DNA of 64,000 nt from Clostridiales bacterium (GTDB taxonomy: Bacteria; Bacillota; Clostridia; Christensenellales; Aristaeellaceae). Below the pieces are notes generated by a model. That model ran no database searches and was not told the DNA's origin. It saw nothing but the letters and a program-made list of their open reading frames with translations. The stretch covers positions 2,976,001-3,040,000 of the forward strand of contig CP069419.1 in assembly GCA_017569285.1 (NCBI GenBank). Reading direction: 5' to 3'. The position numbers were made by a program, and so were the translations under genes. Of this stretch, positions 33,101-61,438 are shown in pieces (position 1 is the first letter of the stretch; every line of letters starts with the position of its first letter).

Positions 33101-33245
33101 GAACGAGCTGTTCCGGATTCCTGAGATTCCGGAAAGCATGAAGCCGAAGAAGATGCCGTCCGGCACATGGAAGGTCTTCGAAGGATATGATACCCCCCTG
33201 GGTGTCGAGACGATCATCAACCACGTCGGCGACTGCTTCGACTGA
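26235..33245 (+). CDS. giant adhesin 1, C-terminal part (after frameshift)
   Basis: The open frame after the shift encodes the last 2,336 residues of the 7,310-residue protein. It has no plausible ribosome site of its own; the first ATG-type start is inside a repeat (26325). Order: the end of unit 15 and units 16-18 of array C; array D of fourteen SpaA-like domains (27144-31292); two domains of the GDLVITNTVISDD type (DUF7601/pilin isopeptide linkage-like, about 31293-31910); and four diverged Cna-B domains (31918-33130) with KxWDDxNxRxGxRP-like openings. It ends with a short Pro/Lys linker and the signature YDTPLG...NHVGDCFD. No LPXTG, hydrophobic tail or basic end is present, so anchoring must differ from a classical sortase substrate. 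Confidence 0.9.
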   Translation, partial: AIDGYKTVKDDYNFTNTITGTTSVSGTKTWVDGGKGHDNSKDVTLTLKRTSKKAGSTEETVSDATISWNGDTYTYSDLQQYDAEGYEYEYSVEEAAIDGYKTVKDDYNFTNTITGTTSVSGTKTWIDGGKDHDNNKDVTLTLKRTSKKAGSTEETVSDATISWNGDTYTYSDLQQYDAEGYEYEYSVEEAAIDGYKTVKDDYNFTNTITGTTSVSGTKTWIDGGKDHDNNKDVTLTLKRTSSKAGSEEETVSDATISWEGNKYTYSALPKYDAEGYEYTYSVTETVPTGYTLIQDGYNLTNTITHVSVSKVDINDQYELPNAHIQIIDSAGKIVDEWDSSTEAYIITGLLVNEEYVLHETVAPNGYTIAADTTFTIDETGMVKVGETVVENGHILIEDAPTKVTVSKTDITGEEELAGAHIQIIDSNGDVIDEWDSTDEPYIIEMLLVNEEYTLRETVAPDGYAIAADTTFTIDKTGKVTIGETVVENGHILIKDDLTKVTVSKKAVTEEKELPGAEIKLLRKATSADGDDADYLDDTKEYVVVEKWISGTKEHEIQAKLERNIEYILRETVAPNGYTIAADTKFSIDDTGRVVSGGMIVENGYILIEDALTEVTVSKQDIAKGEELPGATIQILDEEGNVVREWTSGNKPEKISGLEMGKTYTLHEEVAPLGYTIAADMTFSIDKQGNVNTTGTKTEGGALLINDALTEVTVSKKDIAKGEELPGATIQILDEKGNVIKEWISGEKPVKISGLETGKTYTLHEEVAPLGYTIAADTTFSIDEQGNVSTTGTKTEGGALLINDVLTEVTVSKKDIAKGEELPGATIQILDEKGNVVKEWTSGEKPVKISGLETGKTYTLHEEVAPLGYTIAADTTFSIDEQGNVSTTGTKTEGGALLINDALTEVTVSKQDIAKGEELPGATIQILDEKGNVVKEWTSGEKPVKISGLETGKTYTLHEEVAPLGYTIAADTTFSIDKQGNVSTTGTKTEGGALLINDALTEVTVSKQDVAKGEELPGATIQILDEEGNVVKEWTSGNKPEKISGLETGKTYTLHEEVAPLGYTIAADTTFSIDKQGNVSTTGTKTEGGALLINDALTEVTVSKQDIAKGEELPGATIQILDEEGNVVKEWTSGNKPEKISGLETGKTYTLHEEVAPLGYTIAADTTFSIDKQGNVSTTGTKTEGGALLINDALTEVTVSKQDIAKGEELPRATIQILDSEGNVVKEWTSGEKPVKISGLETGKTYTLHEEVAPLGYTIAADTTFSIDKQGNVSTTGTKTEDGALLINDALTKVVINKTDIANGKELEGAIIIVLDSEGKQVDCWVSKMNETHEIEGLKTSEEYTLKETVAPEGYTIATETTFTIDETGKVTTTGTVTEDGVLLVEDSKTSVKVSKVDIADGEELPGATIQIIDSEGNVVEEWVSTDEAHTIEGLKTGEKYILRETVAPEGYTTATDTKFTIDENGKVTSTGSVTEDDILLVEDALTKVAVTKKDIESGEELAGAHFQVIDNTGKAVEEWDSTATAHTIEGLKTGEGYTLRETVAPTGYTVTTDIAFTIDQTGMVMITGKRSANANGSTEIVVKDAMTKISVSKVDIADGEELEGATIQIIDSQGKVAEEWISAKEPHVIEGLKTGTEYTLRETVAPEGYAIAADTKFTIDKTGKVTSGGTEVEDGYILIKDDLIRKTGDLVITNTVISDDPADKDKEFEYTIELDDKTINGTYGDVTFEDGVAKITLKDGEKATITDLPVDTKYTVTQKDEDGFTVEKTGDTGTISEDPSQADFVNTKETKTVDLVITNTVISDDDSDKEKDFEFTIELEDKTINGTYGDVTFEDGAAKITLKDGEKATITDLPVDTKYTVTQKDEDGFTVEKTGDNGTIHEGFGQADFINRIERKTRTTSSALKKAWDDENDRDGVRPLKVTVDLLANGAVIRTIDLTKESHWMAVIRNLPEADAEGKTIAYTWTERDPGSGYKLTGSVTKGTLTTLTNSRDPEVTEIRFEQKWEDKDDAYGTRPDQIRVQLYEDGEPCGDEVILNAKEGWKHTWTDVKKNRGGRETVYTVRVLDVPDAYRSVTTGDAGSGFVNTSAVERGSLVIRKTFDIEIPEKEETPETELRDITVRKVWEDNDNRDGNRPENVTVHLLAGGEKIRTAVLKAENGWKYTFTNLPKTARGKGITYSVTEDPVTDYICKVNGFTIRNIYRPETTTATVRKVWDDDNNRQGIRPKSIRMTLSNGKTVTLNKANGWQATITGLPKRLNGQEARYTWTEQNVLGYQLQSVSTTGTVTTFTNELFRIPEIPESMKPKKMPSGTWKVFEGYDTPLGVETIINHVGDCFD
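27144..31292 (+). repeat. array D: fourteen SpaA-like domains, units 4-10 near-identical 291-bp repeats
   Basis: Units open with VTVSKxDIAxGEELPGATIQI and contain YTLHEEVAPLGYTIAADTTF. Units 4 to 10 are almost identical in DNA with a 291-base period. Units 1-3 and 11-14 are diverged, and unit 3 carries an inserted RKATSADGDDADYLDD loop. The ETVAPxGY box is the usual isopeptide-associated strand. Confidence 0.9.
33186..33245 (+). other. C-terminal signature Y-x-T-x-L-G ... H-V-G-x-C-F-[D/E]
   Basis: The last 19 residues of giant adhesin 1 begin YDTPLGVETIINH and end VGDCFD. The same end occurs in giant adhesin 2 (54298-54356, YQTALG to GDCFD) and in the small protein at 60632 (61379-61438, YETPLG to GVCFE). 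The Cys is always third from the end. Confidence 0.85.
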
Positions 33246-33264
33246 TCCAAAAACAAATTCCCTT

Positions 33265-33288
33265 AAGCGCCCGAATGGGCGCTTTTTT
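33265..33288 (+). terminator. Rho-independent terminator after giant adhesin 1
   Basis: Perfect stem AAGCGCCC / GGGCGCTT with a GAAT loop, followed by further T residues. Confidence 0.93.
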
Positions 33289-33826
33289 GTGCCTCCGGAC
33301 AACCAGTTACCCGGCAGTTTCGCTTTTCCGAACAATCCGGCAGGGAACACGCGGCACGGGAAACGTTTGCGCTTAACATTTTAGTAATATTCATCCAATA
33401 AGGTTCGGAAAACGGCCGGAATCAGCAAGCACAGGCAAATCATTGTTTATATTTGAGTTGTATGTTGAAATAAAGACAATATAGTGATATACTATAATTT
33501 GAAATAGTATTGAAGAAACCAGACAAAAAAACGGGGATAAATACGAAGAACGAATGAACAGATATGACGATTCGTTAACAACCATAACCTGATCCAGCCA
33601 GAAATGCAAACGTTTGACATCTGTCAGGAAATGAAAAGTCCGAAAAACAAGGCGAAAAGCAAAGCAGATCATGAAAACGTTATTATTTATCGCCTCAGAG
33701 CCCCAAATTTGCACGCCAAAAGATGGACAACTGTTGGACACACTATGCTACGGTATATACGTTAAAGAAGAAACGCAACTGAAATTCAGGGATAAACCGA
33801 GCAAAACAATCTTGGGAGGAAGACCA
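33289..33826 (+). promoter_or_regulatory. promoter and leader region of the second acidic protein/giant adhesin operon
   Basis: These 538 bases hold no convincing gene. TTGAAA (33465-33470) and TATACT (33488-33493) have 17-base spacing, and a second possible -10, TATAAT, overlaps (33493-33498). An inverted repeat ATACTAT / ATAGTAT (33489-33510) covers the -10. Two AAACGTTTG-centred sites resembling CcpA cre boxes lie at 33358-33371 and 33605-33618. A perfect inverted repeat TTTTCCGAAC (33324-33333) / GTTCGGAAAA (33403-33412) lies upstream. The predicted leader is about 325 bases long. The frame of the next gene is open back to an ATG at 33671, but GGGAGGA at 33814-33820 supports the start at 33827. 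Confidence 0.6.
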
Positions 33827-35635
33827 ATGAAGAAGACCTGGAAGCAGTGGATTGCAATCGCCTGTGTACTTTCGATGATCGCGTGCATGCTGCCCGCCAT
33901 GACCCTGGCGGAAGACGGCGTGGCAACGCCGACCGACCTGACACCCGTTCCGGAAGAACCGGCGGGAGAAGAGCCAACGAAAGAACCAGGGGAAGAAACG
34001 ATTCCCGGATCGGGAATCCCGGAGCTTCTGTTTGGCATTCCCGGATATAAAGGCACCCTGAAGGCAGGCGAGGATTTCACCATTGTCCTGCATTCAGACC
34101 GGTATGCCAACATCCTGGTGACCCTGGTGCTGAGCCCGAAGAACGGCCAGCCTGCAGACACCGAGGGAGTGAAGGTCCTCTTCAATGAAAAGGATAAGAA
34201 GCTGGTCCGGGTCGAAAAGGAAGACGCGGACAGCGGCAGCATTGACCTGCAGTTCGAAGCCTATATCGCTCCGGATACCGATTACATCTTTGTGATCACA
34301 TCCCCGTTTGATGCAGACTTCACCCTGACAGCCGTCCATTGGAAAGAGGCAGCTGCGGAGCAGGAGGACGGGGACGAAGAAGAACCCGCAGAAGAAGAAC
34401 CCGCAGAAGAAGAGCCCGCAGAAGAAACCAAAGACGAAGAACCTGTGGACGAAGAGCCTGAAAACGTGGAAAAAACAAACGAAGAAGAAACCAATCCGGA
34501 AGAGCCGAATGATATCACCATTACGGAGATTATCGAAGAAGAAAATACCGTCCATGCCTGGATCAGCACCGAAGATGACCAGACCGGAGAAACCATTACC
34601 CTGAAAGCAAACGCCGAACCGGAACTGGACGGTGTGCCGACCTGGTATGTACGGAATGAAGAAGTGGAAGAGGGCGCCTGGAAGAAAGCCGGATACGGCA
34701 GTCACCTGACGATAGAAGCCGCCGAAGGCAATGAATACCGCTTCGTGCTGCAGGACGGCACCGTGAGCGAAACGTTCCGGCTGATCATAGCTGCTGAAGA
34801 AATCCCTGAGGATCTTCACGAAGAAACGGAAGATGCCGAAGAAGTAGAACAGAATCCTGATGAAGATAATACCGATCCGGAAGGTGAAAGCGAGGATGCG
34901 CTGACAGAAGAGTCCGAAACTCCTGCAGAACTGGAAGAAACTGCAAATGTGGAAGAACCGGATGAGAACGAAGACGCTGAAGAGAAATCCGAAGGCGCTG
35001 AAAATGCAGATGTAACTAACGAAGAAGAGAATAAAGACAGCGAAGAGGAAACACAGGAAGAGGAACGGGAGGAAGAGCCGGAAGAGGAGGCTGAAATCCT
35101 GCCGGATCCTGAAGAACTGCTGGCGCTTGGTTATTACGGAACCCAGGTGGTTATGAGCAAAGGCGCGGATGTTTACGAAAGCACGGAAGAAGGCGCTGAG
35201 CCGGTGGAACATCTGGAAGCCGGAACCGAGCTGTGGGTTATTCCCACAGAGACAGAAGGCTGGGCGGAAATCTACAGGACAGACGAAGAAACCCCGGTCC
35301 GGTACATCCGCTGGGATGATGTGATCATTAACCAGAAGCCCGAAACGGAAGATGAGGAAGAGGAAGAAGAACTGCCGGCACGAAGTGTTGAGGTTACATC
35401 GTCACTTTGGGGCATGCTCTCGATACCGATCGGAACCGAGATTACGATGAAAGCGGAACTGATCAATTTCAAGGATGATGATATCTGCACATTCCAGTGG
35501 CAGTATCGTCCGGAAGGGGCAGACGCGTTTATCGATATCGGGGATGCCAACGAGCTGACTTATGTATATTACATTGATGAAGAGAATTTCTACTATACCT
35601 GGCGTCTGATTGTTATTGTCGCACAGGGAGAATGA
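33827..35635 (+). CDS. secreted acidic multidomain protein, paralogue 2 (partner of giant adhesin 2)
   Basis: A 602-residue exported protein with a signal peptide of about 28 residues (cut near TLA/EDG). Domains in order: VATPTDLTP spacer; a beta-sandwich-like domain (75-173) starting YKGTLKAGEDFTIVL; a Glu-rich linker; an Ig-like domain (241-325) with TWYVRNEEVEEGAW and FVLQDGTVSE; a second acidic linker (326-425); an SH3-like domain (428-505) with ELLALGYYGTQVVM and RYIRWDDVI; and a C-terminal Ig-like domain (518-602) with DDICTFQWQY and ENFYYTWRLIV. It adds one Ig-like domain to the plan of the 9646 protein. The giant gene follows after 47 bases. No cell-wall anchor signal is visible. Confidence 0.85.
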   Translation: MKKTWKQWIAIACVLSMIACMLPAMTLAEDGVATPTDLTPVPEEPAGEEPTKEPGEETIPGSGIPELLFGIPGYKGTLKAGEDFTIVLHSDRYANILVTLVLSPKNGQPADTEGVKVLFNEKDKKLVRVEKEDADSGSIDLQFEAYIAPDTDYIFVITSPFDADFTLTAVHWKEAAAEQEDGDEEEPAEEEPAEEEPAEETKDEEPVDEEPENVEKTNEEETNPEEPNDITITEIIEEENTVHAWISTEDDQTGETITLKANAEPELDGVPTWYVRNEEVEEGAWKKAGYGSHLTIEAAEGNEYRFVLQDGTVSETFRLIIAAEEIPEDLHEETEDAEEVEQNPDEDNTDPEGESEDALTEESETPAELEETANVEEPDENEDAEEKSEGAENADVTNEEENKDSEEETQEEEREEEPEEEAEILPDPEELLALGYYGTQVVMSKGADVYESTEEGAEPVEHLEAGTELWVIPTETEGWAEIYRTDEETPVRYIRWDDVIINQKPETEDEEEEEELPARSVEVTSSLWGMLSIPIGTEITMKAELINFKDDDICTFQWQYRPEGADAFIDIGDANELTYVYYIDEENFYYTWRLIVIVAQGE

Positions 35636-35682: not shown

Positions 35683-38600
35683 ATGAAGAACAATATCAAG
35701 CAGAGAACCATCGCAATTCTGCTGGCATTGATCCAAATGGTCACAATGGTTATGCCGGCAAGCATCGCAATGGCGGAAGATGAGTATATATCTGGTGAAG
35801 TCAATCATATTGGCGATCGGCTCATTTACTATATGAAGGTGAAGATGAGCGAAACCATAAGAACCGACCTGGCTCAGAACAAATACTATATTGTTGTTGA
35901 ACAGGACAATGATGGCGTTAAATCATACGCTTCAAGAAGTTTCTCCGATATTGCCGCAAATGGATTCCAGGGCTTTGATGATTTTGTTCATCGAAATGCA
36001 ATGTGGCAGGAAATTCATTATGGACCGACAGAGACTGCAAGTTACCGTATTGCCATTGCCAAAATGGAGCAAAACAGTCTGGACAATATGATAGGTGCAT
36101 TTGCTGCCCAGTATGAGACTTCCGGAAATGCAATCGGCAGTGATTTATATCATTGGGAACTCAATGGACAGGCACATAGTGATCTGGAAATTACTGAAGC
36201 AGAGAAATATGATGTAGAGGTTAATTTCCTGGACTACAGTGCGGATAATATTCCTGCGCCTGAGGTCGAAGGCAATTATTATCTGATCGCGATGGCTGTC
36301 GATAACTTTAATGCATCCACGATTGCAGCACTGGAAGGGACGCCCTATTGGTATATCAAAAAACTGGAGAACTATGCCGGAACAACCACACCGGATGTTA
36401 TCAGTATTCCGGGATTCAGCAATCAATCCAATAACGGATATTATTTCAGCGAAAGCTATGTTGTCGGCAAACCATATGCGCTCATGACAGATGAGGAAAA
36501 AGAAAGCATTAAGGCCCGGCTGGTTCATACCACAGAAAATCTTTCTACCTATAATGATTTACATGGATGGGCGACAGGAAACAGTATTAATACCTATAAT
36601 GAAGTAATCAACGGCAGTTTCCCGGATTATGATGTGCTGTTTTCTGAACCTGTATCGGATGGTGACGTTGAATACCGAATTGGATTCCAGCAGGGGACGG
36701 TAAAAGAGCTTGACGTGGTTCTGGAGTTTGATCCACCGGAAGGCAAGGCTGCGATTCCGGCAGGAGATTATTACATTGTACTGGAAGCCACAGCAAAAGA
36801 CGGGGTTACCCATTATTACAAAACGATCGAGCTAACCACAGACGGCACGGAGGTCAAGACCATTATCCCCGCCGATGACAATTGGTCGGAAGGGCAGCAT
36901 TATTCCCTGAACTGGCAGGGTGTAACCGCCAAAGTTATCAAGAAAAAAGATGGAGCAACAATTACGCCCGGCGGATACAAACCGCAGGACAACAGTTATA
37001 CAGAAGCATATGTGATTAACAATTATACGTATACGTATTCCTATGTGGAAGAGGAAGATACGGCAAATCACAAACTCCTGATGGAGCATAAGATTACTCT
37101 GAAGTATAATCCGCTGGAAGATGCGCTGACTCCACTGCAGATTCTCGGACCCGGAATCAATTATGGCGTTACGGCAGAAAAATTCAACCATACGGGCCAC
37201 ATGCAGACCAATTTTGCAACGAACTATTATATCTGCCATGGCGATACAGACGTAAATGTCCAGCCGGACCTTGGCAACACAACCGGTTCTGTTGTTGCAG
37301 CCAATATTGAAGGCATGATGCATATGAACGCGCCAAGCGATGTGGTGCTGTTCATTGATAAATATGATGCGGACAAAGTGGATAACAAATTATCCAATGT
37401 CATCGTTGTTGAATCCACATCGGACCGGATTTCGGAATCCATCGTTGACCCGATTATCAATCACGGCGCGGCGATGTCTGAAATTCTGGCGGCAAAGGAA
37501 GCCACTTTTGCACCCAAGTCCAATGAGATTGATCTGACACAGTTCCCGGACGGTACGACTATCTATATCGATCCGGTCAATATCCGGAACTACTTTACCG
37601 GAGACGGTTCCGGGATAAAAATCCATATGCATCCCAATCAGGTTGTTGTCTGGAATATTCCGGGAGAAACCGTTAGTATTGGACAGATCCTGTATACCTA
37701 TACGGACGGAATGAATTGGGCCAGCGAAGGCGAGGGCGGCGGCCGGGAACGCGTTGCCACACACAATGTTTTCAACATGCCGGATGCGACGACAGTTCGT
37801 CTGAATGAAGCATACGGTATGTTCCTGATTCCGCAGGAAAGTGCTCATACAACCGTTACTCAGTCCAGTGAAGGCTGGCTGATTACGGGCGGCGAATTTA
37901 CAAGTCAAAGGCAGTCCAACGAATGGCACAGCAGGAACCGGTCCCTGACGATGTCGGTTGACGCTGACCTGAGCTTCGGAAAGACGGTGGACGAACAAGC
38001 ACCGAAATCCGGAGATGTGTTTGAATTTGAACTGTATCAGTGGGATGAGAACGCGGACGACGATGCCGGAGATACACACTGGACAAAGGTTGCGACGCTG
38101 ACGAACAGCGGCCCGTCCATGACATACTCTGTGCTGTATGATAGCGGAAACGGCGGACGTGTATTCAAAATCAAAGAAAAAGGGAAAGCGGAAAATGTTT
38201 CCAGTTCCTATTTCTATGATGAGTCGGAATACTATATTACTGTTGTTTACATGGGATATAGCAGTGTCGTTTATGCTGCATTCCCGCAGTATTATACGGA
38301 TGCCGCCCATGCAATTGAGCGGTTCCGGAACAACGACATCAGCGGAGTACCCACTTCCACTTCCAATTTCAAAGGCCTGATCGATGCGACGGATGACGAG
38401 AATGCTATCAGCGCGATTACTTTCCACAACACAAAGAAAGATGCGAAATCCGCACAGCTTCAGGTCGAGAAGCACCTGAACTCCTGGGGTAACGCAACGG
38501 AATTCTCATTTATCCTGAAACAGGTACTCAACGATGGAAAGTACCCGCCGATGCCTAAGGATGCAAAGAATGCGAACGATATAACCTATGAGGAATATAT

Positions 38601-41600
38601 TGCTCAGGATGAGCCGCTTCCCGAAGAAAACGGTACATTTACAAAGACGGTTACCATCAGCAAGAGCGAAGCACTGACGGCAAACTTCGGACTGATCAAA
38701 TACAATGATGCCGGAGTATACAGGTATACAATCTCCGAAATCATTCCTGACGGTGCATTTGCAATTGACAACGAAGATTTCAATAACATTCTGGAAACAA
38801 CATATGCGCAGGACAAATCATACAACTATTACTATGTCGACGGTACGGTGTATGACAATACAGGCATTCCGGTAACCGTTACAGTTGAGGAAGCAGATCC
38901 GGAACCCATCGTGACTGTTCAGTATGGTAATAATACAGGCGACAAATTCGCGGTATTTACCAATACATACCGGAAAGCAAGCACGGATCTGAAAGCCACA
39001 AAGACAATCATCGGCAAAAAGTTCAAATTCGATGGAACAGACAAGTGGACGTTTACAGTAACAGCTGTTGAAGATGGTAATTCGTCGAACAGCAATATCC
39101 CGATGCCGACCACTACATCTATTGAACTTCAGCCGGAGGATGGTACCTCGCTTGCTGAAATAGATTTCGGCACTATCGAGTATACGATCGATGACATCGG
39201 AAAGACGTATATCTATACAATTACCGAGACTGATAAAGACGGTAATCCGATCAAGGCAGAGGATATTACAGTTGCAATTACTGAAAACGCAGAAGACCAT
39301 ACATTGGTTGTGACCAGAACACCCGAAGAGAGTATTATATCCTTTGTCAACTTTGATGAAGGCAAAACCAGCATTAAAGTTGAAAAGATATGGGTGAACA
39401 GTCTTGGGCAAACAGTAACGCATGATACAGGTTCTGCCACAGTCCAGCTGATTGCAGTAAAAACCGAGGTAACCCCGCCTGAACCGACTGGTAATCTGCA
39501 CGTTGAAGCCAACTGGACAAACAATCGTGAGCCGGCGAATGATGTCAGTATTGTTATATCAGTCGATGGAAACAATTCTGTGACTTTGAATTCCGCGAAC
39601 AGCTGGAGCGGCGATTTCAGCGGACTGAAGGTGGGCACCCATACCCTGAAGGCGACAGTACAGGGAGAAAATGTAACAGTTACTCCGGAAGAAAAACAGA
39701 TTGTTATCACAGAAGGACAGAACGCTGAGACTTTTGCGGCCACCTATGAGCCGCCGGTGATTAAAAAGGATCTGACTGTAAGCATTACCTGGGATGGTGG
39801 CGCTCCGGAGAACGACATAATCGCAAATGCCAGTGATGGATCATCTGTTACGCTGAACAGTGACAACGGATGGACCGGGGCGTTTGATAATATGGTGGTC
39901 GGTCAGGAATATACCGTAACACTGACAAAACCGACAGGTGTGGAATATACATCCGATAATCCCCAGAGCACAACAATACAAAACAGCGATGATAATGCTC
40001 TGGCATTTACAGGAACTTATACGCCGAATGCAGCAGAACTGGAAGTATCCATCAATTGGAACAATGTTCCGAGTGATGTAACTGTTCAGGTAACAGCTGT
40101 AAATACAGCCAATTCCAATGATGCCCACAGCATTACATTCAATGCTGACGGTAATACTCAGAACTGGAGTGAAACCATCACCGGCCTGACAGGGAATCAG
40201 ACGTATACTGTTACTGCAAGCATTTCCGGTGACAATGCGGACAAAGCGACGATCTCTGACAATTCAAAGACCGTACAGGTTTCGCCTGGAACGAATAACG
40301 TCAGTTTCTCAGGGAATTATACGTCAGGTTCCCAGCCGACAGAGACGGCAGAACTGGAGGTGGCCATTACCTGGAACAATATCCCGAGCGATATTGCTGT
40401 TCAGATCACTGCTGTGAATACGGAAGATGCAAGCGATACAAAGACCATCACACTGTATCCGAACAACAGCAACAATTGGACCGGAACAATCAATGGCCTG
40501 ACGGTAGGAAAGACCTACAGCGTATCTACGAGTATACAGGGTGGCAATGCTGGAAATGCAAGCATTTCCGATAGCCCGAAGACTGTTGCAATTGCTTCCG
40601 AGAACAACAACACCAGTTTTAACGGCACATATTCATCCTCAACGCCGGGGAATGCATCGATACCGGTTACCATCAACTGGGATAACGAACCCAGCGATGT
40701 TGAAGTGACAGTAACGGCGGTTACCAGTAACGGTGGAAGTAATTCCAAGTCAATCACGATTACTGGAACAGGCACAACCTGGCAAGGAACAATTGATGGC
40801 TTAGAGGTGAATACAAATTACGAGATTACATATACCATTTCAGGAACGAATGCCTCTAATGCTTCGCTTTCACCGAATACTCCACAATATGTAAATTCGG
40901 GTTCCGGTCTTACGTATACAGGAACGTATACAAGTGCTGAACCGATTCCTGAAGGGAAAATCCGGATAAAAATATACAAACAGACAACGCATCAGTCCGG
41001 TAATGACAAAGAGCTTCTTAACACTGCAGTTTTGGATACCGGAGATGTAATCGTTACAGTAACATTGAAAGGGAACTCTTTCTCTGCCGGCTACAACACA
41101 GAGCCATCAGTGGAAGGAGGCAATGGAAACACGCCGGCTCTGACTGTAGATGGTCCTGTTGATATTCAAATTCCATTGACCTTTACTGAATCCAGGGAGT
41201 ATTCGATAACATTCTATTCCGGTTGGAGTATTGATAATATTGTCAATGCAACAGTGGCTCAAGCGACTTCCAATAACGGAGCTATCAGAAAGTTTAATAC
41301 TACGATACGTTATATTGCGGGAAATGGTATTGCTGATATTCGGTTCACGAAAACACGCGGGCAGATTCAGATTAAAGAAGGCCTTAAACAGCTAAGCGAG
41401 ATTGTCGGAAATATTAGCGAAGGTGATTATTTCCTGTATGGCGAACCGTTTACGCTCCAGCATTCTGATGATCCGGAAGGTGAAGACTGGGAGCATACAT
41501 GGCCGGATCTGCCGGAATACATACTGGAAGAAAATGAAGACGGGACAACAACCATATACAAACTAACATATTATGTTATTGAAACAACAGCAACGGGTGT

Positions 41601-49500: not shown

Positions 49501-49819
49501 GGCGAAGGGTCAGATCACGCTGACGAAGAAGAACAGTGCGAAGACGAAGGCGCTGGAAGGTGCGGAGTTTGACCTGTACCGTGTGAAGACGGGCGAAGAG
49601 ACAGCCGACGTCAAGATCAACACAGACGGGAAACTGACGACAAATGCAGACGGCCAGATCATCGTAGGCGACCTGGAGCCTGGTGACTACTACTTCATCG
49701 AGACGAAGGCTCCCGACGGTTATGTGGCTGTGCCTGAAGGCGGAATCAAGAGCAGCGTGGAGACGATTCTTTGCGGGGCAGAGCACAATGCCGACAGCGA
49801 CAGTCGAGATGACCAATAA
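46532..49819 (+). CDS. giant adhesin 2, fragment 5 (repeat units 14-24)
   Basis: Ten consecutive in-frame repeats between the shifts at 46528 and 49769. It contains the second Gly-Asp-Ser series (units 18-20) and the only TSEE variant (unit 20). It is not an independent gene. Confidence 0.7.
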   Translation, partial: AGQSTMPTATVEMTNNEEGKGQITLTKKNSAKTKALEGAEFDLYRVKTGEETADVKINTDGKLTTNADGQIIVGDLEPGDYYFIETKAPDGYVAVPEGGIKSSVETIAAGQSTMPTATVEMTNAEEAKGQITLTKKNSAKTKALEGAEFDLYRVKTGEETADVKINTDGKLTTNADGQIIVGDLEPGDYYFIETKAPDGYVAVPEGGIKSSVETIAAGQSTMPTATVEMTNNEEGKGQITLTKKNSAKTKALEGAEFDLYRVKTGEETADVKINTDGKLTTNADGQIIVGDLEPGDYYFIETKAPDGYVAVPEGGIKSSVETIAAGQSTMPTATVEMTNNEEGKGQITLTKKNGAKTKALEGAEFDLYRVKTGEETADVKINTDGKLTTNADGQIIVGDLEPGDYYFIETKAPDGYVAVPEGGIKSSVETIAAGQSTMPTATVEMTNNEEGKGQITLTKKNDAKTKALEGAEFDLYRVKTGEETADVKINTDGKLTTNADGQIIVGDLEPGDYYFIETKAPDGYVAVPEGGIKSSVETIAAGQSTMPTATVEMTNNEEGKGQITLTKKNSAKTKALEGAEFDLYRVKTSEETADVKINTDGKLTTNADGQIIVGDLEPGDYYFIETKAPDGYVAVPEGGIKSSVETIAAGQSTMPTATVEMTNNEEGKGQITLTKKNSAKTKALEGAEFDLYRVKTGEETADVKINTDGKLTTNADGQIIVGDLEPGDYYFIETKAPDGYVAVPEGGIKSSVETIAAGQSTMPTATVEMTNNEEGKGQITLTKKNGAKTKALEGAEFDLYRVKTGEETADVKINTDGKLTTNADGQIIVGDLEPGDYYFIETKAPDGYVAVPEGGIKSSVETIAAGQSTMPTATVEMTNNEEGKGQITLTKKNGAKTKALEGAEFDLYRVKTGEETADVKINTDGKLTTNADGQIIVGDLEPGDYYFIETKAPDGYVAVPEGGIKSSVETIAAGQSTMPTATVEMTNAEEAKGQITLTKKNSAKTKALEGAEFDLYRVKTGEETADVKINTDGKLTTNADGQIIVGDLEPGDYYFIETKAPDGYVAVPEGGIKSSVETILCGAEHNADSDSRDDQ

Positions 49820-54412: not shown

Positions 54413-54986
54413 GTTATGAAAAGCGGGAAAAGGAGCGGAATACACCGGGCAAATGCCGGACATGCAGTGCTGCGATTTATATGTAAAAGGGGAGTGCATA
54501 TCCGGATCCACGGACAGACAGGGGCGCATCCGTCCGGAGAAAAAGCCGGCGCAGGGGTCCGGGAAACTGAGGTAATAATCCGGATAGTTACATTGGATCG
54601 ATTCCATGTAACGGTGAAATGGGCAATGGGCTGAGAAAAATAGTATGAATGTAACCGAACATGTAACCAAAACAGAAAAAATGTATGGCATCAAAGATAA
54701 AAAGAACCCAGGATGTAACCGTTTTGCATACCGAATATCAAGAAAGAGTGGGCAAAAATCAAATACTGATTGGTCCTGGGCGACTTGCCTTTAGTCCCAT
54801 GTGCTTTATGTAATGGAAAATAGGAGATACGAAATAATAGATTATTTTTTTTGTATGTAACTATCAATGAAATTATTTTGTGCTATAATATATTGACAGA
54901 AAATGGAAAAGTATATTCATACACACGGAAGAAAGGCAAAAGGCACACTGTCTGACCCCATTGGATCCGGAACGGAGGGAGCAAGG
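54413..54986 (+). promoter_or_regulatory. 574-base regulatory region with six ATGTAAC/GTTACAT boxes
   Basis: No gene is supported here. Exact heptamers occur at 54587-54593 (as GTTACAT), 54606-54612, 54649-54655, 54661-54667, 54713-54719 and 54855-54861, with a one-mismatch copy (ATGTAAT) at 54808-54814. The first two form a 26-base imperfect palindrome centred on ATCGAT. The third and fourth are direct repeats 12 bases apart. The last abuts the -35 position of the promoter at 54881-54889. This is the layout of a binding region for a regulator that activates a weak promoter. The regulator is not identifiable here. Confidence 0.65.
54881..54889 (+). promoter_or_regulatory. extended -10 promoter upstream of the third acidic protein gene
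   Basis: TGC-TATAAT is an extended -10 element. The expected -35 position (54861-54866) reads CTATCA, which is far from consensus, while an ATGTAAC box ends there. Dependence on an activator is inferred. The leader to 54987 would be about 90 bases. Confidence 0.6.
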
Positions 54987-57977
54987 ATGAAGATGATCAA
55001 AAGGATTGCCGCGATCATGATCGCCGGCTGCCTGATGATGGGCCTTCTTTGCGCTTCTTTCGCGGACGAAACGGAAGAACACATTCCTGATGAAACCACC
55101 ATCGCAAACGAGACACCGGCCGGAACTGCTGATCAGGTAACTGAAGCAGGCAACCCGGGAGTGGCGCCTGTCCCCGAAAACGACAGCGCAGAAGAGGCGG
55201 AAGCAGACGGGGATACAGATGAATATTCGTGGGAAACCCCAACCATAACAGACGCGGAAGGTTATGAGCATTTCATCAGCGATGAAGCTCCGGAATACTG
55301 CATATTCGATAACGGCGGCGGAACGGTTGCTCCTGAAGTGGTTGCCGAACAGCTTCCGGAAGTGACGCCGGCAGTGAACGAAGCCTCCAATCATATCGGT
55401 GAAACGCCGGCACCGGAAGCCGAACAGCAGCCAGCGGCGGAAACCGAGATAACCCGCGCGTGGATTACCGACAGGCAGGATGGGAATGAAACCATTATCC
55501 TGAGGGCCAATGCAAAGCCAGTCCTGGAAGGAAAGGTTACCTGGCAGGTCCATGACAGGAAATGGCAGGAAGACAAATGGGAGGAAATCGGCAGCGGCGA
55601 ACAGCTGACGCTGGATCAGGACAAAGTGAGCAACGGTAACCTGGTGCGCTTCCAGCTGGAAGACGGTACGGTTTCCGAAACATATGAAGTAAAAATCACC
55701 ATTAAAGAAGAAACAAACGAAGAACCGGTAACAGAAGCGCCGGGAACGGAAGTACCCATAACAGAGCCGGCGACAGAAGAACCTGCGACCGGAGAACCGA
55801 CAACGGAAGAACCCGCGACAGGCGAGCCGACGACGGAAGAACCCGTGACTGACGAGCCGACAACCGAAGAACCGGTGACGGATGAACCCGTAACGGAGCC
55901 AGCGACGGAAGAACCTGCGACCGAGGAACCGACGACAGAAGAACCCGCGACAGGCGAGCCGACGACGGAAGAACCCCTGGCGGAAGAGCCAACGACGGAA
56001 GAGCCAGTGACGGACGAGCCGACGACGGAAGAACCCGTAACGGGCGAGCCGACAACAACGGAAGAACCCGCGACAGGCGAGTCGACAACCGAAGAACCGG
56101 TGACGGATGAACTGATGACAGAAGAACCTGCGACGGGCGAGCCGGCAACTGAAGAGCCTGTGTCGAATGAGCCGACAACAGAAGAAACTACTACGGAAGA
56201 ACCCAATGTGGATGAGCCCGTAACGGACGAACCGACGACAGATGAACCCGCTGCGGATGAAACTGCAGCAGACGTGCAGACAACAGAAGAACCTGCAACG
56301 GAAGAGCCCACTGCGGATGAGCCCGCAACGGACGAACCGACGACAAATGAACCCGTTGCAGAAGCACCGGCAGCGGACGAGCCGACAACGGAAGAACCTG
56401 CAACGGAAGAGCCCACTGCGGATGAGCCTGCAACGGACGAACCGACGACAGATGAACCCGCTGCGGAAAAGCCCACTGTGGATGAGCCCGTAACGGACGA
56501 ACCGATGACAGATGAACCCACTGCGGACGAACCGACGACAGATGAACCCACTGCGGATGAACCGGCAGCGGAAGAGCCGGGGATTGAAGAGCCCGCTGGT
56601 GACGAACCTACGAATGATGAGCCTGCCGCGGACGAGACCGGAACAGATGAAAACCCGACCGAGGTGAATCAAGCAGAGGGAACCAGGGAAGAAAACGGCG
56701 AAGCTGAAGGATTTGACGAAGAACCCGGTGAACCGGTCACCCTGCGTGCCTGGGTTACCGGAATCGAAAACGCGCAGGCCGGAGAGACCGTGACGCTGAG
56801 TGCGAATGCCGAACCGGCACTGACCGGTATATCCACCTGGCAGATCCGGAACGAACAGGTGGAAGACGGCAAATGGAAGAGAGCCGGATACGGCGACCAC
56901 ATGACAGTGGAACTGGCTGAAGGCGACGAATACCGCTTTGTGATGCAGGACGGCACTGTGAGCGAGGTGCTGCAGCTTTGCAGGGCTCCTGAAAAGGCCG
57001 CGGGTGAAGACACCGGGGAGGACGAAGCGGCTGAAGAAGCCGGAGAAACCACCGGGACACCGGCCGCGGAAGAACCGGACAAAGAAACGGGAGACACAGA
57101 AGAACCTGAAGAAACCGGGGATACAGCAGAACCCGGAGACGGACCGGAAGAGTCCGGAGACGGGGCTGAAGGGACGGCTGCGGAACCGGAAGGTGAAATG
57201 AGCGAAGGAACCGGCGATACGGAAGAATCCGGGAATGAGCCGGAAGAGCCCGGAGAGGGCGCCGGAGAAACGGCTGCGGAAGCGGAAAGTGAGCCGAGCG
57301 GAATGACCGGCGAAGAAGAAACCGGAGATGCGGAAGATTCCGGAGACGAAGCTGCAGCAACCGGAGACGGAGCTGAGGAAACGAACGCGGAACCGGAAGA
57401 ACCGACCGGAGAGACCGGAGAAAAAGAAGAATCCGGAGATGAGCCGGAAGAAACCGGGGACGGAGCCGAAGAAACAGCCGGGGAACCGGAAGATGAAATG
57501 ACCGGGGAAACCGGAGAACCGGAAGACGGCGAAGCAGCTGACGAACCGGAAGAGTCCGAAGAGCCGGAAGAACCGGCAGAGGGCGCTGAAGGCGAAGGCA
57601 CGGAAGAGTCGGAAGAGAACGGCGAGGGTGAAGAACCCGAAGAACCGGCAGGGGATGGCGAGGACGCTGAAGCGGAGGAACCCGCGGAAGAGCCTGCAGA
57701 GGAACGCGCGCTGCCGGAAAACCGGAGCGCCGTGGTGTCGATCAGCTGGGACGATGAACATCCCGGAATCGGATCCGTCGCACACTTCTCGGTGTTGCTG
57801 ACCGGATACGAAGAACTGAATTACACCGTCCAGTGGATTATGAGCACGGACAACGAGAACTGGACCGAAGTGGAAGGCGCGACCGGCGAGACGATGGACG
57901 TGGTTGTGACCGAGGACAACTACCTTTATTACTGGCGGATCCGGATTCACATTGAAGGATTCAAAGACGTACAGTGA
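54987..57977 (+). CDS. secreted acidic protein, paralogue 3, with Thr/Glu/Pro stalk
   Basis: A 996-residue exported protein with a signal peptide cut near SFA/DET (residue 26). GGAGGGAGCAAGG sets the start at 54987 rather than the in-frame ATG at 54903. Domains: an Ig-like domain (155-242, with VTWQVHD and LEDGTVSE); about 315 residues of TTEEPxTxEP-type repeats (243-558); a second Ig-like domain (584-668, with STWQIRNEQVEDGKW and VMQDGTVSE) close to the one in the 33827 protein; a Glu/Gly-rich second stalk (670-908); and a C-terminal Ig-like domain (913-996) with YTVQWIM and DNYLYYWRIRI. It lacks the SH3-like domain and any LPXTG. It is the first gene before the sortase, 90 bases upstream, with a hairpin in between. 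Confidence 0.85.
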   Translation: MKMIKRIAAIMIAGCLMMGLLCASFADETEEHIPDETTIANETPAGTADQVTEAGNPGVAPVPENDSAEEAEADGDTDEYSWETPTITDAEGYEHFISDEAPEYCIFDNGGGTVAPEVVAEQLPEVTPAVNEASNHIGETPAPEAEQQPAAETEITRAWITDRQDGNETIILRANAKPVLEGKVTWQVHDRKWQEDKWEEIGSGEQLTLDQDKVSNGNLVRFQLEDGTVSETYEVKITIKEETNEEPVTEAPGTEVPITEPATEEPATGEPTTEEPATGEPTTEEPVTDEPTTEEPVTDEPVTEPATEEPATEEPTTEEPATGEPTTEEPLAEEPTTEEPVTDEPTTEEPVTGEPTTTEEPATGESTTEEPVTDELMTEEPATGEPATEEPVSNEPTTEETTTEEPNVDEPVTDEPTTDEPAADETAADVQTTEEPATEEPTADEPATDEPTTNEPVAEAPAADEPTTEEPATEEPTADEPATDEPTTDEPAAEKPTVDEPVTDEPMTDEPTADEPTTDEPTADEPAAEEPGIEEPAGDEPTNDEPAADETGTDENPTEVNQAEGTREENGEAEGFDEEPGEPVTLRAWVTGIENAQAGETVTLSANAEPALTGISTWQIRNEQVEDGKWKRAGYGDHMTVELAEGDEYRFVMQDGTVSEVLQLCRAPEKAAGEDTGEDEAAEEAGETTGTPAAEEPDKETGDTEEPEETGDTAEPGDGPEESGDGAEGTAAEPEGEMSEGTGDTEESGNEPEEPGEGAGETAAEAESEPSGMTGEEETGDAEDSGDEAAATGDGAEETNAEPEEPTGETGEKEESGDEPEETGDGAEETAGEPEDEMTGETGEPEDGEAADEPEESEEPEEPAEGAEGEGTEESEENGEGEEPEEPAGDGEDAEAEEPAEEPAEERALPENRSAVVSISWDDEHPGIGSVAHFSVLLTGYEELNYTVQWIMSTDNENWTEVEGATGETMDVVVTEDNYLYYWRIRIHIEGFKDVQ
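55715..56660 (+). repeat. Thr/Glu/Pro low-complexity coding repeat (EEPxTxEPTT type)
   Basis: About 315 codons of short degenerate repeats of five to ten residues (EEPATGEPTTEEP and similar). This is typical of extended, strongly acidic cell-wall-spanning stalks. The repeat number is likely unstable. Confidence 0.9.
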
Positions 57978-57981
57978 TCCG

Positions 57982-58067: not shown

Positions 58068-58982
58068 ATGAAGGACGAGGAGAAAAAGACCCGGAAAAAG
58101 AGAAAAAAGAAAAACCACCGGGTTTCCAACCTGGTGCTGGTTCTGATTCTCCTGACAGGCGCCGTGATTATGGCGTATCCGTCCTTCAGCGAATACTGGA
58201 ACAGCCTGCATCAGTCCCGCGCGATTATGGGCTACGCCCAGCGCGTGGCGGAACTGACCAATGAAGAATACGAGACGATCTGGTCGGCTGCGCTGGACTA
58301 CAACGAACGGCTGCCGGAGCTGCCGAACCGCTGGCTGGTGGACCATGACGAGAACCTGAAGGCGGACTATGAAACCCAGCTGAACGCCGACGGCACCGGG
58401 AATATGGGATATATCACGATTCCCAAAATCAACGTGAACCTGCCGCTGTACCACGGAACGACAGACTCCGTGCTGCAGACCTCGATCGGCCATATCGCGG
58501 GCACATCGCTGCCGGCCGGCAGCACGCACAGCAACGAGGAGGATTTCCTGATTCCGGATTTTGCCTCCCACTGCGTGCTGAGCGGACACCGGGGACTGCC
58601 CAGCGCCCGGCTGTTCAGCGACCTGGACGCGATGGAGGTCGGGGATATCTTTTACCTGACCATCCTGGACCAGACCCTGACGTATGAAGTGGACCGGATT
58701 ACGGTGATTGAGCCGGAGGAAATGGAGGAGCTGGAGATCATTCCCGGCAGGGACCTGTGTACCCTGATGACGTGCACGCCCTACGGCATCAATACGCACC
58801 GGCTGCTGGTGCGGGGTTCGCGGATCGAGAATGAGAAGAAGAAGCTGAACGTCCGTATTACGGCGGACGGCCTGCGGATCGATCCGCTGTATGTGGCTCC
58901 GTTCATCGCGGTGCCCGTGCTGGTGCTGATGGTCCTGTGGGTGCTGGTGATGACCGGCGGACGCAGGAAAAACCGGCGCTGA
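58068..58982 (+). CDS. class C (pilus-type) sortase
   Basis: A 304-residue transpeptidase anchored by an N-terminal (about 20-37) and a C-terminal (about 276-296) membrane helix; the latter is typical of class C. MGYITIPKINVNLPLYHGT, GHIAGTSLPAG, VLSGHRGLPSARLFSDLD (catalytic His174) and TLMTCTPYGINTHRLLVRG (Cys236, Arg245) are complete, so it should be active. The DPF/DPW lid typical of class C is not seen where expected (WLVDHDENL). About 15 extra residues (STHSNEEDFLIPDFASH) lie between the GTSLPAG and SGHRG motifs. It is the only intact sortase in the window and has no LPXTG protein to act on here. Confidence 0.95.
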   Translation: MKDEEKKTRKKRKKKNHRVSNLVLVLILLTGAVIMAYPSFSEYWNSLHQSRAIMGYAQRVAELTNEEYETIWSAALDYNERLPELPNRWLVDHDENLKADYETQLNADGTGNMGYITIPKINVNLPLYHGTTDSVLQTSIGHIAGTSLPAGSTHSNEEDFLIPDFASHCVLSGHRGLPSARLFSDLDAMEVGDIFYLTILDQTLTYEVDRITVIEPEEMEELEIIPGRDLCTLMTCTPYGINTHRLLVRGSRIENEKKKLNVRITADGLRIDPLYVAPFIAVPVLVLMVLWVLVMTGGRRKNRR

Positions 58983-58998
58983 GCGGAACCGGGAACTC

Positions 58999-59027: not shown

Positions 59028-59080
59028 GTCAGGTATCATAGAAAAACGATTTCATGCAACTGAACACGAGGAGCGAGACC

Positions 59081-59689
59081 ATGGAGATCTACCATCCGAA
59101 GGACGACGAACTGCTGCGGGAAATGAAGCGCGTCCGCCGTGTGCTGAAACGGAAACGGCTGATCACCGGGCTCCTGGTTTTCCTGGTACTGGGCTGTGTT
59201 TTCGGATGGTTTGTATTCAACCGTTACTGTACGCTGGCAGTATTCCACGGCCCTGCGATGGGCGATACGCTGGCGGACGGAAGCCTGGTGCTGGTATGGC
59301 GCGGAAACGGCGAAACGTACCGGCAGGGCGATATCGTACTGTATGAAACCGGAACAGGCACGCAGATCAAGCGCGTGCTGGCCCGGGAGGGCGACCAGGT
59401 GCTGGTGAGCCCGTACGTCCACCTGCGGGTGAACGGCGTGACGCTGGCGGAACCGGAAACCACCGGGCGGAACCTGGACGCCGGGATCCGGACACGCCGC
59501 CTGAACCTGGAGGAAGGCACGCTGTTTGTGGAAGGCGACCAGCTGAGCCTGTCCGTGGACAGCCGGCATGCGGATTATGAGACGGTGCTGGAAGAGAAAG
59601 TGATCGGGAAGGTGCGGTTCGTGCTGTGGCCGGCGTACCGGATCGGCGCGGCGGGTTCGGAAGAGCCCGCACAGGAGGATGGCGTATGA
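59081..59689 (+). CDS. signal peptidase I-like protein lacking the catalytic serine (SipA-like)
   Basis: A 202-residue membrane protein with a basic cytoplasmic start and one helix (about 28-46). The S26/type I signal peptidase boxes are recognisable: HGPAMGDTL where S-M-x-P-T-L is expected, QGDIVLYET, IKRVLAREGD (the general-base Lys is kept) and EGDQLSLSVDSRH. The nucleophile Ser is Ala59 and the box Pro is Asp62, so peptidase activity is not expected. In Streptococcus pyogenes, SipA is a signal peptidase homologue without its catalytic pair that is needed for pilus polymerisation; the same role is inferred. ATG 59081 has GAGGAG at 7-base spacing; ATG 59054 has none. The stop overlaps the next start (ATGA). 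Confidence 0.88.
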   Translation: MEIYHPKDDELLREMKRVRRVLKRKRLITGLLVFLVLGCVFGWFVFNRYCTLAVFHGPAMGDTLADGSLVLVWRGNGETYRQGDIVLYETGTGTQIKRVLAREGDQVLVSPYVHLRVNGVTLAEPETTGRNLDAGIRTRRLNLEEGTLFVEGDQLSLSVDSRHADYETVLEEKVIGKVRFVLWPAYRIGAAGSEEPAQEDGV

Positions 59690-60645
59690 AGAAAGTATTC
59701 GGCCGTCTCCTGGTATTCCTGCTGATTGCCGCGGCGGCCGCCTGGCTGCTGTATCCGGTGGTATCGGACCAGCTGGCCCGGCAGCGCGACGCGCAGACCA
59801 TGAAGGCATACCACCGGGCTGTGCGCCTGAAGTCCGCGGATGAAATCGAGACGGCCATCGAGGAAACCGGTTACTACAATACCGGACTGGAGCCGGAAGG
59901 CATTCCGGACGTATTCGCCGGAAGAAGGCGGGTTCCCGCGGAATACCGGGCACGGATGGACGTTTGCGACGGGGTGATCGGCGAGCTGAAGATTCCCGGG
60001 ATCAACGTATACCTGCCGATTTACCACAGCGGCGCGGAAAGCGCGGCAGAGAAGCTGGTGCATGTGGAAGGCTCGGCACTGCCGGCCGACATGGACGGAA
60101 CGCATATCGTGCTGGCGGGGCCCGGTGCGCAGAAGGCCGCCGGATTCCTCGGCGACCTGCAGCTGACAGATGCGCGGATGCTGGAGGACCTGGACCGGGT
60201 GGTTCCGAACGACCTGGTTTTCCTGGAAGTGCTGGACCGCACGATGATCTTCCGGGTGGAAGGTGTACAGACCCTTTCCGTGGACGGCCTTTCCGGAGTC
60301 GACATTTCCGGCGAGAGCGGCAGCCAGCTGCTGACGCTGGTGACGGAAAAATCGGGCCGGGCGCTGCTGGTCCGCGCGCGGAGAACCGCGGCGGCGGACG
60401 TGCGGGACAGGCTGACGGCCCAGGACCGGGCGGACGTGCCGTCCGACCTGGTGAACGTGCTGTTTATGGGCATCCCGGTGTTTATAACCGGACTGCTGAT
60501 TATGGGCGTCATTGAGCGCTTCAAGAAGCGGAGCTACCGGCTGCCGACGGAGCAGAAGAGAAGAAAGAAAAAGACGGATCCGGATGATGAAGAGACGGAT
60601 GCGGACGAACCGGAAAGGACGGGAGAACAGGATGAAACGGTTTAA
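59686..60645 (+). CDS. sortase-like protein lacking catalytic Cys and His (pseudo-sortase)
   Basis: A 319-residue protein with the full class C layout: N-terminal helix (about 5-24), sortase fold, C-terminal helix (about 254-275), then a long charged tail. IGELKIPGINVYLPIYHSG and VEGSALPADMDGTHIVLAG align with the active sortase. However, SGHRG has become AGPGA (Pro146 for His), and TLxTCTPYG has become TLVTEKSG (Glu221 for Cys) with a short deletion before ALLVRARR. Transpeptidation is therefore not expected. It may recruit substrate or regulate the active enzyme. It is coupled by ATGA to the SipA-like gene and overlaps the next gene by 14 bases, which implies fixed stoichiometry. Confidence 0.88.
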   Translation: MKKVFGRLLVFLLIAAAAAWLLYPVVSDQLARQRDAQTMKAYHRAVRLKSADEIETAIEETGYYNTGLEPEGIPDVFAGRRRVPAEYRARMDVCDGVIGELKIPGINVYLPIYHSGAESAAEKLVHVEGSALPADMDGTHIVLAGPGAQKAAGFLGDLQLTDARMLEDLDRVVPNDLVFLEVLDRTMIFRVEGVQTLSVDGLSGVDISGESGSQLLTLVTEKSGRALLVRARRTAAADVRDRLTAQDRADVPSDLVNVLFMGIPVFITGLLIMGVIERFKKRSYRLPTEQKRRKKKTDPDDEETDADEPERTGEQDETV

Positions 60646-61438
60646 GCAGCTAATATCAGTCATCGCCGCCGCTGCGGTGATGCTGGGCTGCCTGTGCGCT
60701 CCTGCCGCGGCGGAGAGCCCGGCCGGATCGCTGACCGTGACTATCCAGGGAAATAACCAGGGCGTTTCCACGGCCGGAATCACCCTGAACCTGTACCGGA
60801 TCGGCGGGGAGGACGGAGACACATGGAAGCTGGACGGCGCTTTTGCCGAAACCGGCTACATGGAAGCCTGGACAGAACAGTCCGGGGCCAAGATGCGTAC
60901 CGCCCTGCGGAATATCCGCGGAATTGTGAACACCAGCGGGATGAACCCCAGCGCCAACGCGAAGAGCAACGCAAACGGTGTGATCGTATTCGAAAGCCTG
61001 CCCCGGGGCATCTATTTCGGCATTGCCACGGGCGTGCCGAAGGAAATGACAGTGCAGAACTTCGTGGCGCATATCCCGGAGGCCGGAAGCGGCAAAATGG
61101 ACGCCCAGGCGGTGCTGAAGAATAACGTGACCGTTCCCAAGGAAAAGAATCCGTATAAGGTGACGATCCGCTACATCTATGAGGACGGGACGCCGGCCCA
61201 CCAGACGTATGAGGGTACCTACTGGCCGGACGACATTTACGACGTATACAGCCCGGTGATTCCCGATTATACCGCTTCCATCCTGCGGGTGAACGGCGTG
61301 ATGCCGGAACGGGACCTGCAGTTTACGGTCATCTATATCCGGAACGACGACAGCATCGTGATTGTGAACATTCCGGAGTATGAAACACCATTGGGCCTGG
61401 GCGAACTGCAGATGCACGTCGGCGTGTGCTTCGAATAA
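60632..61438 (+). CDS. small secreted pilin-like protein with MucBP-like domain and C-terminal signature
   Basis: A 268-residue exported protein with a signal peptide cut near APAAA/ESP (residue 27). Residues 29-170 resemble a pilin/Cna-B beta domain (GSLTVTIQG, ITLNLYRIGG, LPRGIYFGIATG). Residues 175-240 resemble a MucBP-type domain (YKVTIRYIYEDGTPAHQTY). The end, YETPLGLGELQMHVGVCFE, carries the same signature as both giants. With no LPXTG or membrane tail, it may be the base or cap subunit joined to the giants. The ATG overlaps the pseudo-sortase gene by 14 bases. GLGC-like residues in the leader (MLGC) are a poor lipobox. Confidence 0.8.
   Translation: MKRFKQLISVIAAAAVMLGCLCAPAAAESPAGSLTVTIQGNNQGVSTAGITLNLYRIGGEDGDTWKLDGAFAETGYMEAWTEQSGAKMRTALRNIRGIVNTSGMNPSANAKSNANGVIVFESLPRGIYFGIATGVPKEMTVQNFVAHIPEAGSGKMDAQAVLKNNVTVPKEKNPYKVTIRYIYEDGTPAHQTYEGTYWPDDIYDVYSPVIPDYTASILRVNGVMPERDLQFTVIYIRNDDSIVIVNIPEYETPLGLGELQMHVGVCFE
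61379..61438 (+). other. C-terminal signature, copy 3
   Basis: YETPLGLGELQMHVGVCFE is the end of the small protein at 60632. It keeps Tyr, Thr, Leu-Gly, His-Val-Gly, Cys-Phe and the final acidic residue while the middle differs from the giants. This helps to define the constrained positions. Confidence 0.75.

What the first reader, a model, noticed from the sequence alone, without database searches (positions are those of the whole stretch)
33186..61438. Shared C-terminal signature in three LPXTG-free surface proteins
Both giants and the small protein at 60632 end in Y-x-T-x-L-G, seven variable residues, H-V-G-x-C-F-[D/E], with the Cys third from the end (33186-33245, 54298-54356, 61379-61438). 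None has LPXTG, a hydrophobic tail or basic end residues. It is seen directly that the two giants keep 13 identical final residues with different codons. Inference: this is a new sorting or cross-linking tag read by the sortase/pseudoenzyme module in the same locus. I know of no described signal of this form.
Basis: partly seen in the sequence, partly recalled or inferred. Interest (0 to 1): 0.88.

Follow-up and report, generated by a model that had tools for sequence, protein, structure and literature searches.

The report
C-terminal tail paired with peptide-binding protein
Many giant surface proteins of a family of gut and rumen bacteria end in the same short tail, and the gene next to such a protein very often makes a protein built like a peptide catcher, which suggests an undescribed way of handling surface proteins by reading their last amino acids.

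Summary
The tail is real: 22 residues at the exact C-terminus of both giants and the small protein (spacing six, not seven). It recurs across the window's bacterial family on Cna_B giants, MBG and MucBP proteins and class B sortases. The sortase/pseudo-enzyme reading is not supported: a 97%-complete relative has tails but no sortase-domain match, sortases themselves end in the tail, and LPSTG pilins lie beside the local class C sortase. The consistent partner is a long SBP_bac_5 (OppA-fold) gene directly downstream. In five near-complete genomes, 11 of 11 fetched SBPs of this subtype follow a tail gene; 0 of 19 other SBP_bac_5 do. In the best 79 loci found through the SBP, 66 upstream genes score as tails (44 of 57 not seen before), against 0 of 1,843 other ORFs. 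Tails lacking their own SBP (20, all of one subtype) match an SBP-paired tail of the same genome; tails with separate SBPs mostly differ. The Cys is sometimes replaced. Best explanation: a C-terminal address peptide bound non-covalently by a dedicated OppA-like protein; binding is inferred. Nothing like it was found in the searches made.

The parts
33177..33242 (+). 22-residue C-terminal tail of giant 1
54288..54353 (+). 22-residue C-terminal tail of giant 2
61370..61435 (+). 22-residue C-terminal tail of the small MucBP protein (HVGVCFE subtype)
60632..61438 (+). small secreted tail protein (MucBP domain), the SBP-paired tail gene in this window
   Evidence: Pfam MucBP; pair with 61480
61480..63537 (+). 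paired OppA-fold protein (SBP_bac_5, 685 aa), proposed reader of the HVGVCFE-type tail; possible lipobox LLGC by eye
   Evidence: Pfam; AlphaFold pLDDT 90.4; closest folds lactococcal OppA and AppA
11269..26259 (+). giant 1, first open part (signal peptide, repeats; Cna_B-like by eye); frame broken near 26259
26325..33245 (+). giant 1, second open part, ends in the tail
35683..43011 (+). giant 2, first open part; the frame is broken five times in 324-bp repeats before the tail
49683..54356 (+). giant 2, last open part, ends in the tail (SpaA/Cna_B tested on 52500-54356)
9577..11265 (+). acidic secreted protein with Ig-like C-terminal region (by eye and own profile), upstream of giant 1
33671..35635 (+). 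acidic secreted protein with Ig-like C-terminal region, upstream of giant 2
54903..57977 (+). acidic repeat protein with Ig-like C-terminal region
58068..58982 (+). class C sortase; an LPSTG pilin lies about 6 kb away, just past the window
   Evidence: NCBIfam class_C_sortase E 9.6e-76
59081..59689 (+). SipA-like signal peptidase fold; catalytic Ser position replaced (motif recalled, read by eye)
59686..60645 (+). pseudo-sortase; catalytic His and Cys positions replaced (motif recalled, read by eye)

Best explanation
The tail is a C-terminal address peptide. After Sec export of a secreted surface protein, its last 22 residues are bound non-covalently by a dedicated OppA-fold protein (SBP_bac_5) made from the next gene. 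This former transporter receptor would hold, escort or dock the surface protein at the cell surface. Tail subtypes would work like a barcode: each has its own OppA-like protein, which for at least the INHVGDCFD subtype would also serve giants encoded elsewhere in the genome. Shown: the tail, its C-terminal position, the gene coupling, the subtype pattern, the fold. Inferred: physical binding, where the complex sits, and that its role is docking or escort.
For: Pfam-ascertained SBPs in five genomes: 11 of 11 long-subtype SBPs follow a tail gene, 0 of 19 other SBP_bac_5 (30 fetched loci of 46 match rows; two of the 19 had no upstream ORF in range). SBP-ascertained loci in a named collection, the best 80 of 274 kept, 79 distinct: 66 of 79 upstream genes score >=6 bits as tails, 0 of 1,843 other ORFs; 44 of the 57 loci not already fetched. 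Co-occurrence in 200 family genomes: 55 of 55 with a tail at E<=1e-4 have the SBP, 62 of 145 others, Fisher p 1.4e-16; at E<=0.01, 67 of 71 and 50 of 129 (kinship ignored). 16 of 19 further SBP loci follow a divergent tail read by eye. Partner proteins differ in architecture. Subtype pattern. Identity falls at residue 22; within-genome tails are more alike than between genomes, 0.896 vs 0.820, with codons differing almost as much. Tail similarity tracks SBP similarity better than the preceding body does, 0.46 vs 0.33, 122 pairs. Fold.
Against: No binding data. Lipobox-like motif in only 10 of 76 SBPs by a crude rule, so what retains the complex is unknown. 28 of 102 tail genes had no recognised partner downstream. 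8 of 79 SBP loci showed no tail even by eye (L294, L303, L305, L307, L317, L330, L338, L353; L307, L317 and L353 start near a contig end), nor did 3 of 19. 62 of 145 genomes without a strong tail have the SBP. All 20 unpaired tails are of one subtype, and in G071 two paired tails are 91% identical, so the barcode is only partly shown. Tail-SBP covariation is partly common descent.
Confidence: 0.55

Rival explanations
1. Peptide signal or assembly report: the tail is cut off and the released C-terminal peptide is caught by the OppA-like protein, as pheromone-binding proteins do, and imported or sensed.
For: OppA-fold partner; PDB profile hits include the pheromone-binding PrgZ (recalled function) and AppA.
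Against: Conservation spans 22 residues, not only a short peptide. No transport genes were recognised among the genes after the SBP that one search listed (read by eye, many entries empty). Very large proteins and sortases would be odd precursors.
Confidence: 0.15
2. One reading: a new sorting or cross-linking tag processed by the sortase / pseudo-sortase / SipA module.
For: The HVGVC[FY]E subtype sits directly after pseudo-SipA and pseudo-sortase in the loci read; the module is detected in 11 of 37 genus genomes. 18 of 21 tail genomes of other genera have some sortase match.
Against: Tails without any sortase-domain match in G071, G393, G401 and G007 (71% complete); module in 11 of 37 genus genomes against tails in 29 of 37; LPSTG proteins nearby; tail on sortases.
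Confidence: 0.06
3. Covalent anchoring through the near-terminal Cys (disulfide, thioester or lipid), with the SBP incidental.
For: Cys at position -3 in 64 of 68 rule-matching tails.
Against: T, S, A or N at that position in some paired tails; no transmembrane segment such as MYXO-CTERM has (PMC11980579 abstract).
Confidence: 0.08
4. Operon linkage only: the tail is a structural cap of the last domain and the SBP a neighbour with an unrelated role.
For: Two adjacent genes can co-inherit; tail-SBP correlation contains phylogeny.
Against: The tail follows several different last domains; identity falls sharply at residue 22; unpaired tails elsewhere in the genome resemble a paired one.
Confidence: 0.08

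Closest known systems
LPXTG cell-wall sorting signal and sortases (class C pilus assembly)
   Same: C-terminal signal on secreted Cna_B/SpaA-type surface proteins, in the same loci
   Different: No LPXTG at the end, no hydrophobic segment, no basic end; present in genomes without a sortase-domain match; found on sortases themselves
AbpA LPKTS-AVK short sorting signal with class B sortase in oral streptococci (PMC4974636, passages read)
   Same: Short C-terminal signal without hydrophobic tail, gene directly followed by its partner gene
   Different: AbpA has LPKTS cut by SrtB; here the partner gene encodes an OppA-fold protein and the tails carry no LPxT(S/G)
MYXO-CTERM (PMC11980579 abstract) and GlyGly-CTERM (PMC3237569, search listing)
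   Same: C-terminal tag shared by otherwise different proteins; MYXO-CTERM has an invariant Cys
   Different: MYXO-CTERM carries a transmembrane helix and Arg-rich end, with a protease partner; no such segment here (GlyGly-CTERM layout recalled)
OppA/AppA/PrgZ peptide-binding proteins (SBP_bac_5)
   Same: Fold and family; solved relatives include AppA with a nonapeptide and lactococcal OppA with bradykinin (PDB titles)
   Different: Longer, directly follows a surface-protein gene, no transport genes recognised beside it; proposed ligand is the C-terminus of a large protein
SipA pilus factor of Streptococcus pyogenes (PMC4049620, search listing only)
   Same: Signal-peptidase-like protein beside pilus genes
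   Different: Not detected in most genus genomes that have the tail

Membership tests
Sortase substrate (LPXTG-type) | LPXTG-like motif near the C-terminus | tested here: not met
   none near the three C-termini
Sortase substrate (LPXTG-type) | hydrophobic segment and basic end after the motif | tested here: not met
   maximum 19-residue mean 0.89; ends in D/E
Sortase substrate (LPXTG-type) | a sortase in the same genome | tested here: not met
   no PF04203 match in 3 of 21 tail genomes (G071, 97% complete; G393; G401)
AbpA-type short signal | LPKTS-like motif with class B sortase gene next | tested here: not met
   motif absent from the tails; usual next gene is SBP_bac_5
MYXO-CTERM / GlyGly-CTERM type tag | C-terminal transmembrane helix | tested here: not met
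   the three window tails
Described C-terminal domain in Pfam or NCBIfam | model match at the tail | tested here: not met
   no best stretch listed covers the tail in the proteins tried
SBP_bac_5 (paired protein) | Pfam PF00496 match and OppA fold | tested here: met
   E 1.2e-33; (Foldseek E 7e-30, TM 0.56-0.63 by model length for lactococcal OppA)
OppA-type transport receptor (paired protein) | encoded with an Opp permease | tested here: inconclusive
   none recognised by eye among downstream genes listed; not systematically annotated, and the genomes have other SBP_bac_5 genes
Peptide-binding function (paired protein) | binds the tail peptide | not testable with these tools
   needs binding assay or co-structure

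The most novel reading that the evidence does not exclude
A barcoded C-terminal addressing system: many surface-protein architectures carry one of several tail subtypes, and each subtype is read by its own retired transport receptor (OppA fold), giving parallel, insulated, non-covalent routes for surface proteins, sortases included, independent of sortase chemistry.
Probability: 0.38. Interest if true: 0.92.

Novelty: categorically new. Interest (0 to 1): 0.85.

Why it matters
How gut and rumen Clostridia keep giant LPXTG-free proteins at their surface is open. A tail-plus-receptor pair gives a directly testable answer, a new use for one of the commonest binding-protein folds, and a simple way to annotate unrecognised surface proteins: read the gene before a long SBP_bac_5. 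If the barcode holds, it is also a ready set of orthogonal peptide tags and binders.

Tried and rejected
Sortase/pseudo-enzyme as reader: disfavoured. The LPXTG model (TIGR01167) is noisy (rings in 14 of 14 control genomes at E<=1), so only strong hits next to the locus were used. Cys chemistry as essential: disfavoured by substituted tails. Recent gene conversion as cause of alike tails: disfavoured by codon differences. Tail outside the family: order search, 297 genomes, hits below 1e-4 only in family f1; class search at E<=0.001, 1 of 391 genomes, the own one. Of the weak order-level hits, those read were internal or unrelated (some were read on the wrong strand there; one search scored both strands). 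Structure of the small tail protein without alignment failed (pLDDT 35.9) and is not used. The upstream half of the motif (EEYxTPLG) also occurs inside three acidic proteins: unexplained.

Full report
Observation. The three tails exist at the stated places, each followed by a stop. The spacing between LG and HVG is six residues, and the giants share 15 final residues, with 2 of 15 codons different. A 24-column profile of the three finds G000's own tails at E down to 2.5e-17 and hits below 1e-4 in 29 of 37 genomes of the genus. Fetched hits that match the whole profile are at the C-terminus; one, L027, has a stop inside. Over 33 tails from 11 genomes, selected for ending in INHVGDCFD, column identity is 0.73 at residue 22 from the end and 0.18 at residue 23: the unit is 22 residues. 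In a wider set of 22 tails the steadiest positions are L-G and, near the end, G and C.

Distribution. With the wider profile the tail is found in 71 of 200 genomes of the family at E<=0.01, 19 of 50 genera, counting some partial matches; 55 are at E<=1e-4. Outside the family, hits below 1e-4 are absent from the order sample of 297 genomes and from a class sample, where 1 of 391 genomes, the own one, matched at E<=0.001. Named loci are mostly rumen and gut Clostridia MAGs under varied depositor labels; three carry Flexilinea or Chloroflexi labels, not checked.

Carriers. Tails end Cna_B and FctA proteins, an MBG-repeat protein, MucBP proteins and class B sortases (by eye also long sortase-like fusions). 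The sortases in G009 and G018 end in clear tails; those in G001, G002 and G008 in a degenerate form.

Not the sortase module. An LPSTG pilin lies about 6 kb from the class C sortase, just past the window, and an LPSTG giant further on, beyond transposase-like genes; a pilin with the same signal lies near the class C sortase in G002, G008 and G036 and G023. That the sortase acts on them is inference. Pseudo-SipA and pseudo-sortase, whose catalytic positions look replaced by eye, are detected in 11 of 37 genus genomes, where they precede the small HVGVC[FY]E protein in the loci read. G019 (97% complete) has INHVGDCFD tails without them. Of 21 tail genomes from other genera, 18 have some sortase match and three, including the near-complete G071, have none.

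The partner. In 102 distinct tail genes, 67 are followed by an SBP_bac_5-type gene, 3 by an acidic Ig gene, 3 by another tail gene, 28 by something else, 1 had too little flank (some SBP starts were missed by the script). Because these loci were found mostly through the tail, I tested the reverse. (a) PF00496 in five genomes: of 30 genes with loci, out of 46 match rows, 11 score >=664 bits with a profile of tail-linked SBPs and all 11 follow a tail; 19 score <=55 and none does, two of them having no upstream ORF in range. (b) SBP-ascertained named loci, the best 80 of 274 confirmed stretches, 79 distinct, found with an alignment of tail-linked SBPs: 66 of 79 upstream genes score >=6 bits as tails, 58 of them >=15, against 0 of 1,843 other ORFs. 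22 of the 79 overlap loci fetched before; of the other 57, 44 score >=6. By the rule G-x-[CSTAN]-x-[DEN]-stop it is 68 of 79 against 8 of 1,843. Reading by eye adds five to the 66 (L319, L324, L335, L336, L339) and leaves eight without. (c) 20 SBP loci chosen, 16 of them from genomes without a match: one had no ORF, and 16 of the other 19 follow a divergent tail read by eye, one of them 570 bases away. (d) Co-occurrence in 200 family genomes: 55 of 55 strong-tail genomes have the SBP, 62 of 145 others; at the looser cut 67 of 71 against 50 of 129. The cross-table was typed by hand, assumes that both calls drew the same 200 genomes, and the test ignores kinship and completeness.

Barcode. In 13 genomes, 20 tails without their own SBP, all INHVGDCFD-like, are 0.82-0.95 identical to an SBP-paired tail of the same genome, while 38 within-genome comparisons of tails with separate SBPs give 0.18-0.64 and one 0.91. 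In the window, giants 1 and 2 match the paired tail at G000:C1:701097, not the HVGVCFE tail beside them. Within-genome INHVGDCFD tails are more alike (0.896, 34 pairs) than between genomes (0.820, 494 pairs; 0 of 2,000 label shuffles), with codon differences of 0.41 and 0.45: constraint rather than recent copying. Across 122 pairs, tail similarity follows SBP similarity (Spearman 0.46) better than the preceding 120 residues do (0.33), and still does where those are dissimilar (0.35; 0 of 500 permutations). Shared descent contributes to these numbers.

The partner's fold. The window SBP is modelled at pLDDT 90.4, pTM 0.86. Closest solved folds by Foldseek are lactococcal OppA (E 7e-30, TM 0.56 by model length) and AppA with a nonapeptide; profile hits include OppA and PrgZ. 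A lipobox-like motif is seen in 10 of 76 by a crude rule.

Mechanism. Inference: the free C-terminus enters the OppA-type cleft, and the complex keeps or escorts the surface protein. Tail-bearing sortases would be recruited by the same means. Binding, location and role are untested.

Novelty. No best stretch listed by Pfam or NCBIfam covers the tail in the proteins tried. Literature searches listed nothing that, by title and abstract start, describes it; most papers of subscription journals are not in that library. The nearest precedent, AbpA/SrtB (PMC4974636, passages), differs in motif and partner.

Noticed in passing
42949, 44246, 45219, 46516, 49757 (giant 2): Five of 26 matched repeat units carry the same one-base-longer variant (ATTCTTTGCGG instead of ATTGCTGCGG), each breaking the frame, at spacings that are multiples of 324 bp plus 1. 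The variant is identical each time, so it is unlikely to be random error; variant units, a frameshift site or an assembly artefact are open.
   Followed up: partly
26202-26325 (giant 1): Giant 1 is also broken once by a frame change inside its repeats.
   Followed up: no
9577-11265, 33671-35635, 54903-57977: Acidic repeat proteins with a similar Ig-like C-terminal region lie beside giants here and in other loci and one other genus (L178, L179); no Pfam match in the two tested.
   Followed up: partly
L034, L035, L040 (acidic proteins): The first half of the tail motif (EEYxTPLGL) occurs internally in three acidic proteins.
   Followed up: partly
59081-60645 and L039, L044, L048, L054: A pair of apparently dead enzymes (SipA-like plus pseudo-sortase) is detected in 11 of 37 genus genomes; in these four relatives the SipA-like protein carries an insert of about 100 residues.
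   Followed up: partly
L302, L310, L313, L324: Proteins of up to 1,667 aa that begin like the class B sortases and end in a tail: apparent sortase-adhesin fusions, judged by eye from the N-terminus.
   Followed up: no
L289, L335, L353: Tail-type SBP loci in MAGs labelled Flexilinea or Chloroflexi by their depositors (tail seen at L289 and, degenerate, L335; none at L353); labels not verified.
   Followed up: no
5343-9231: A small cluster resembling type II secretion / type IV pilus parts (membrane protein, pseudopilin-like proteins, PilT-like ATPase), judged by eye.
   Followed up: no
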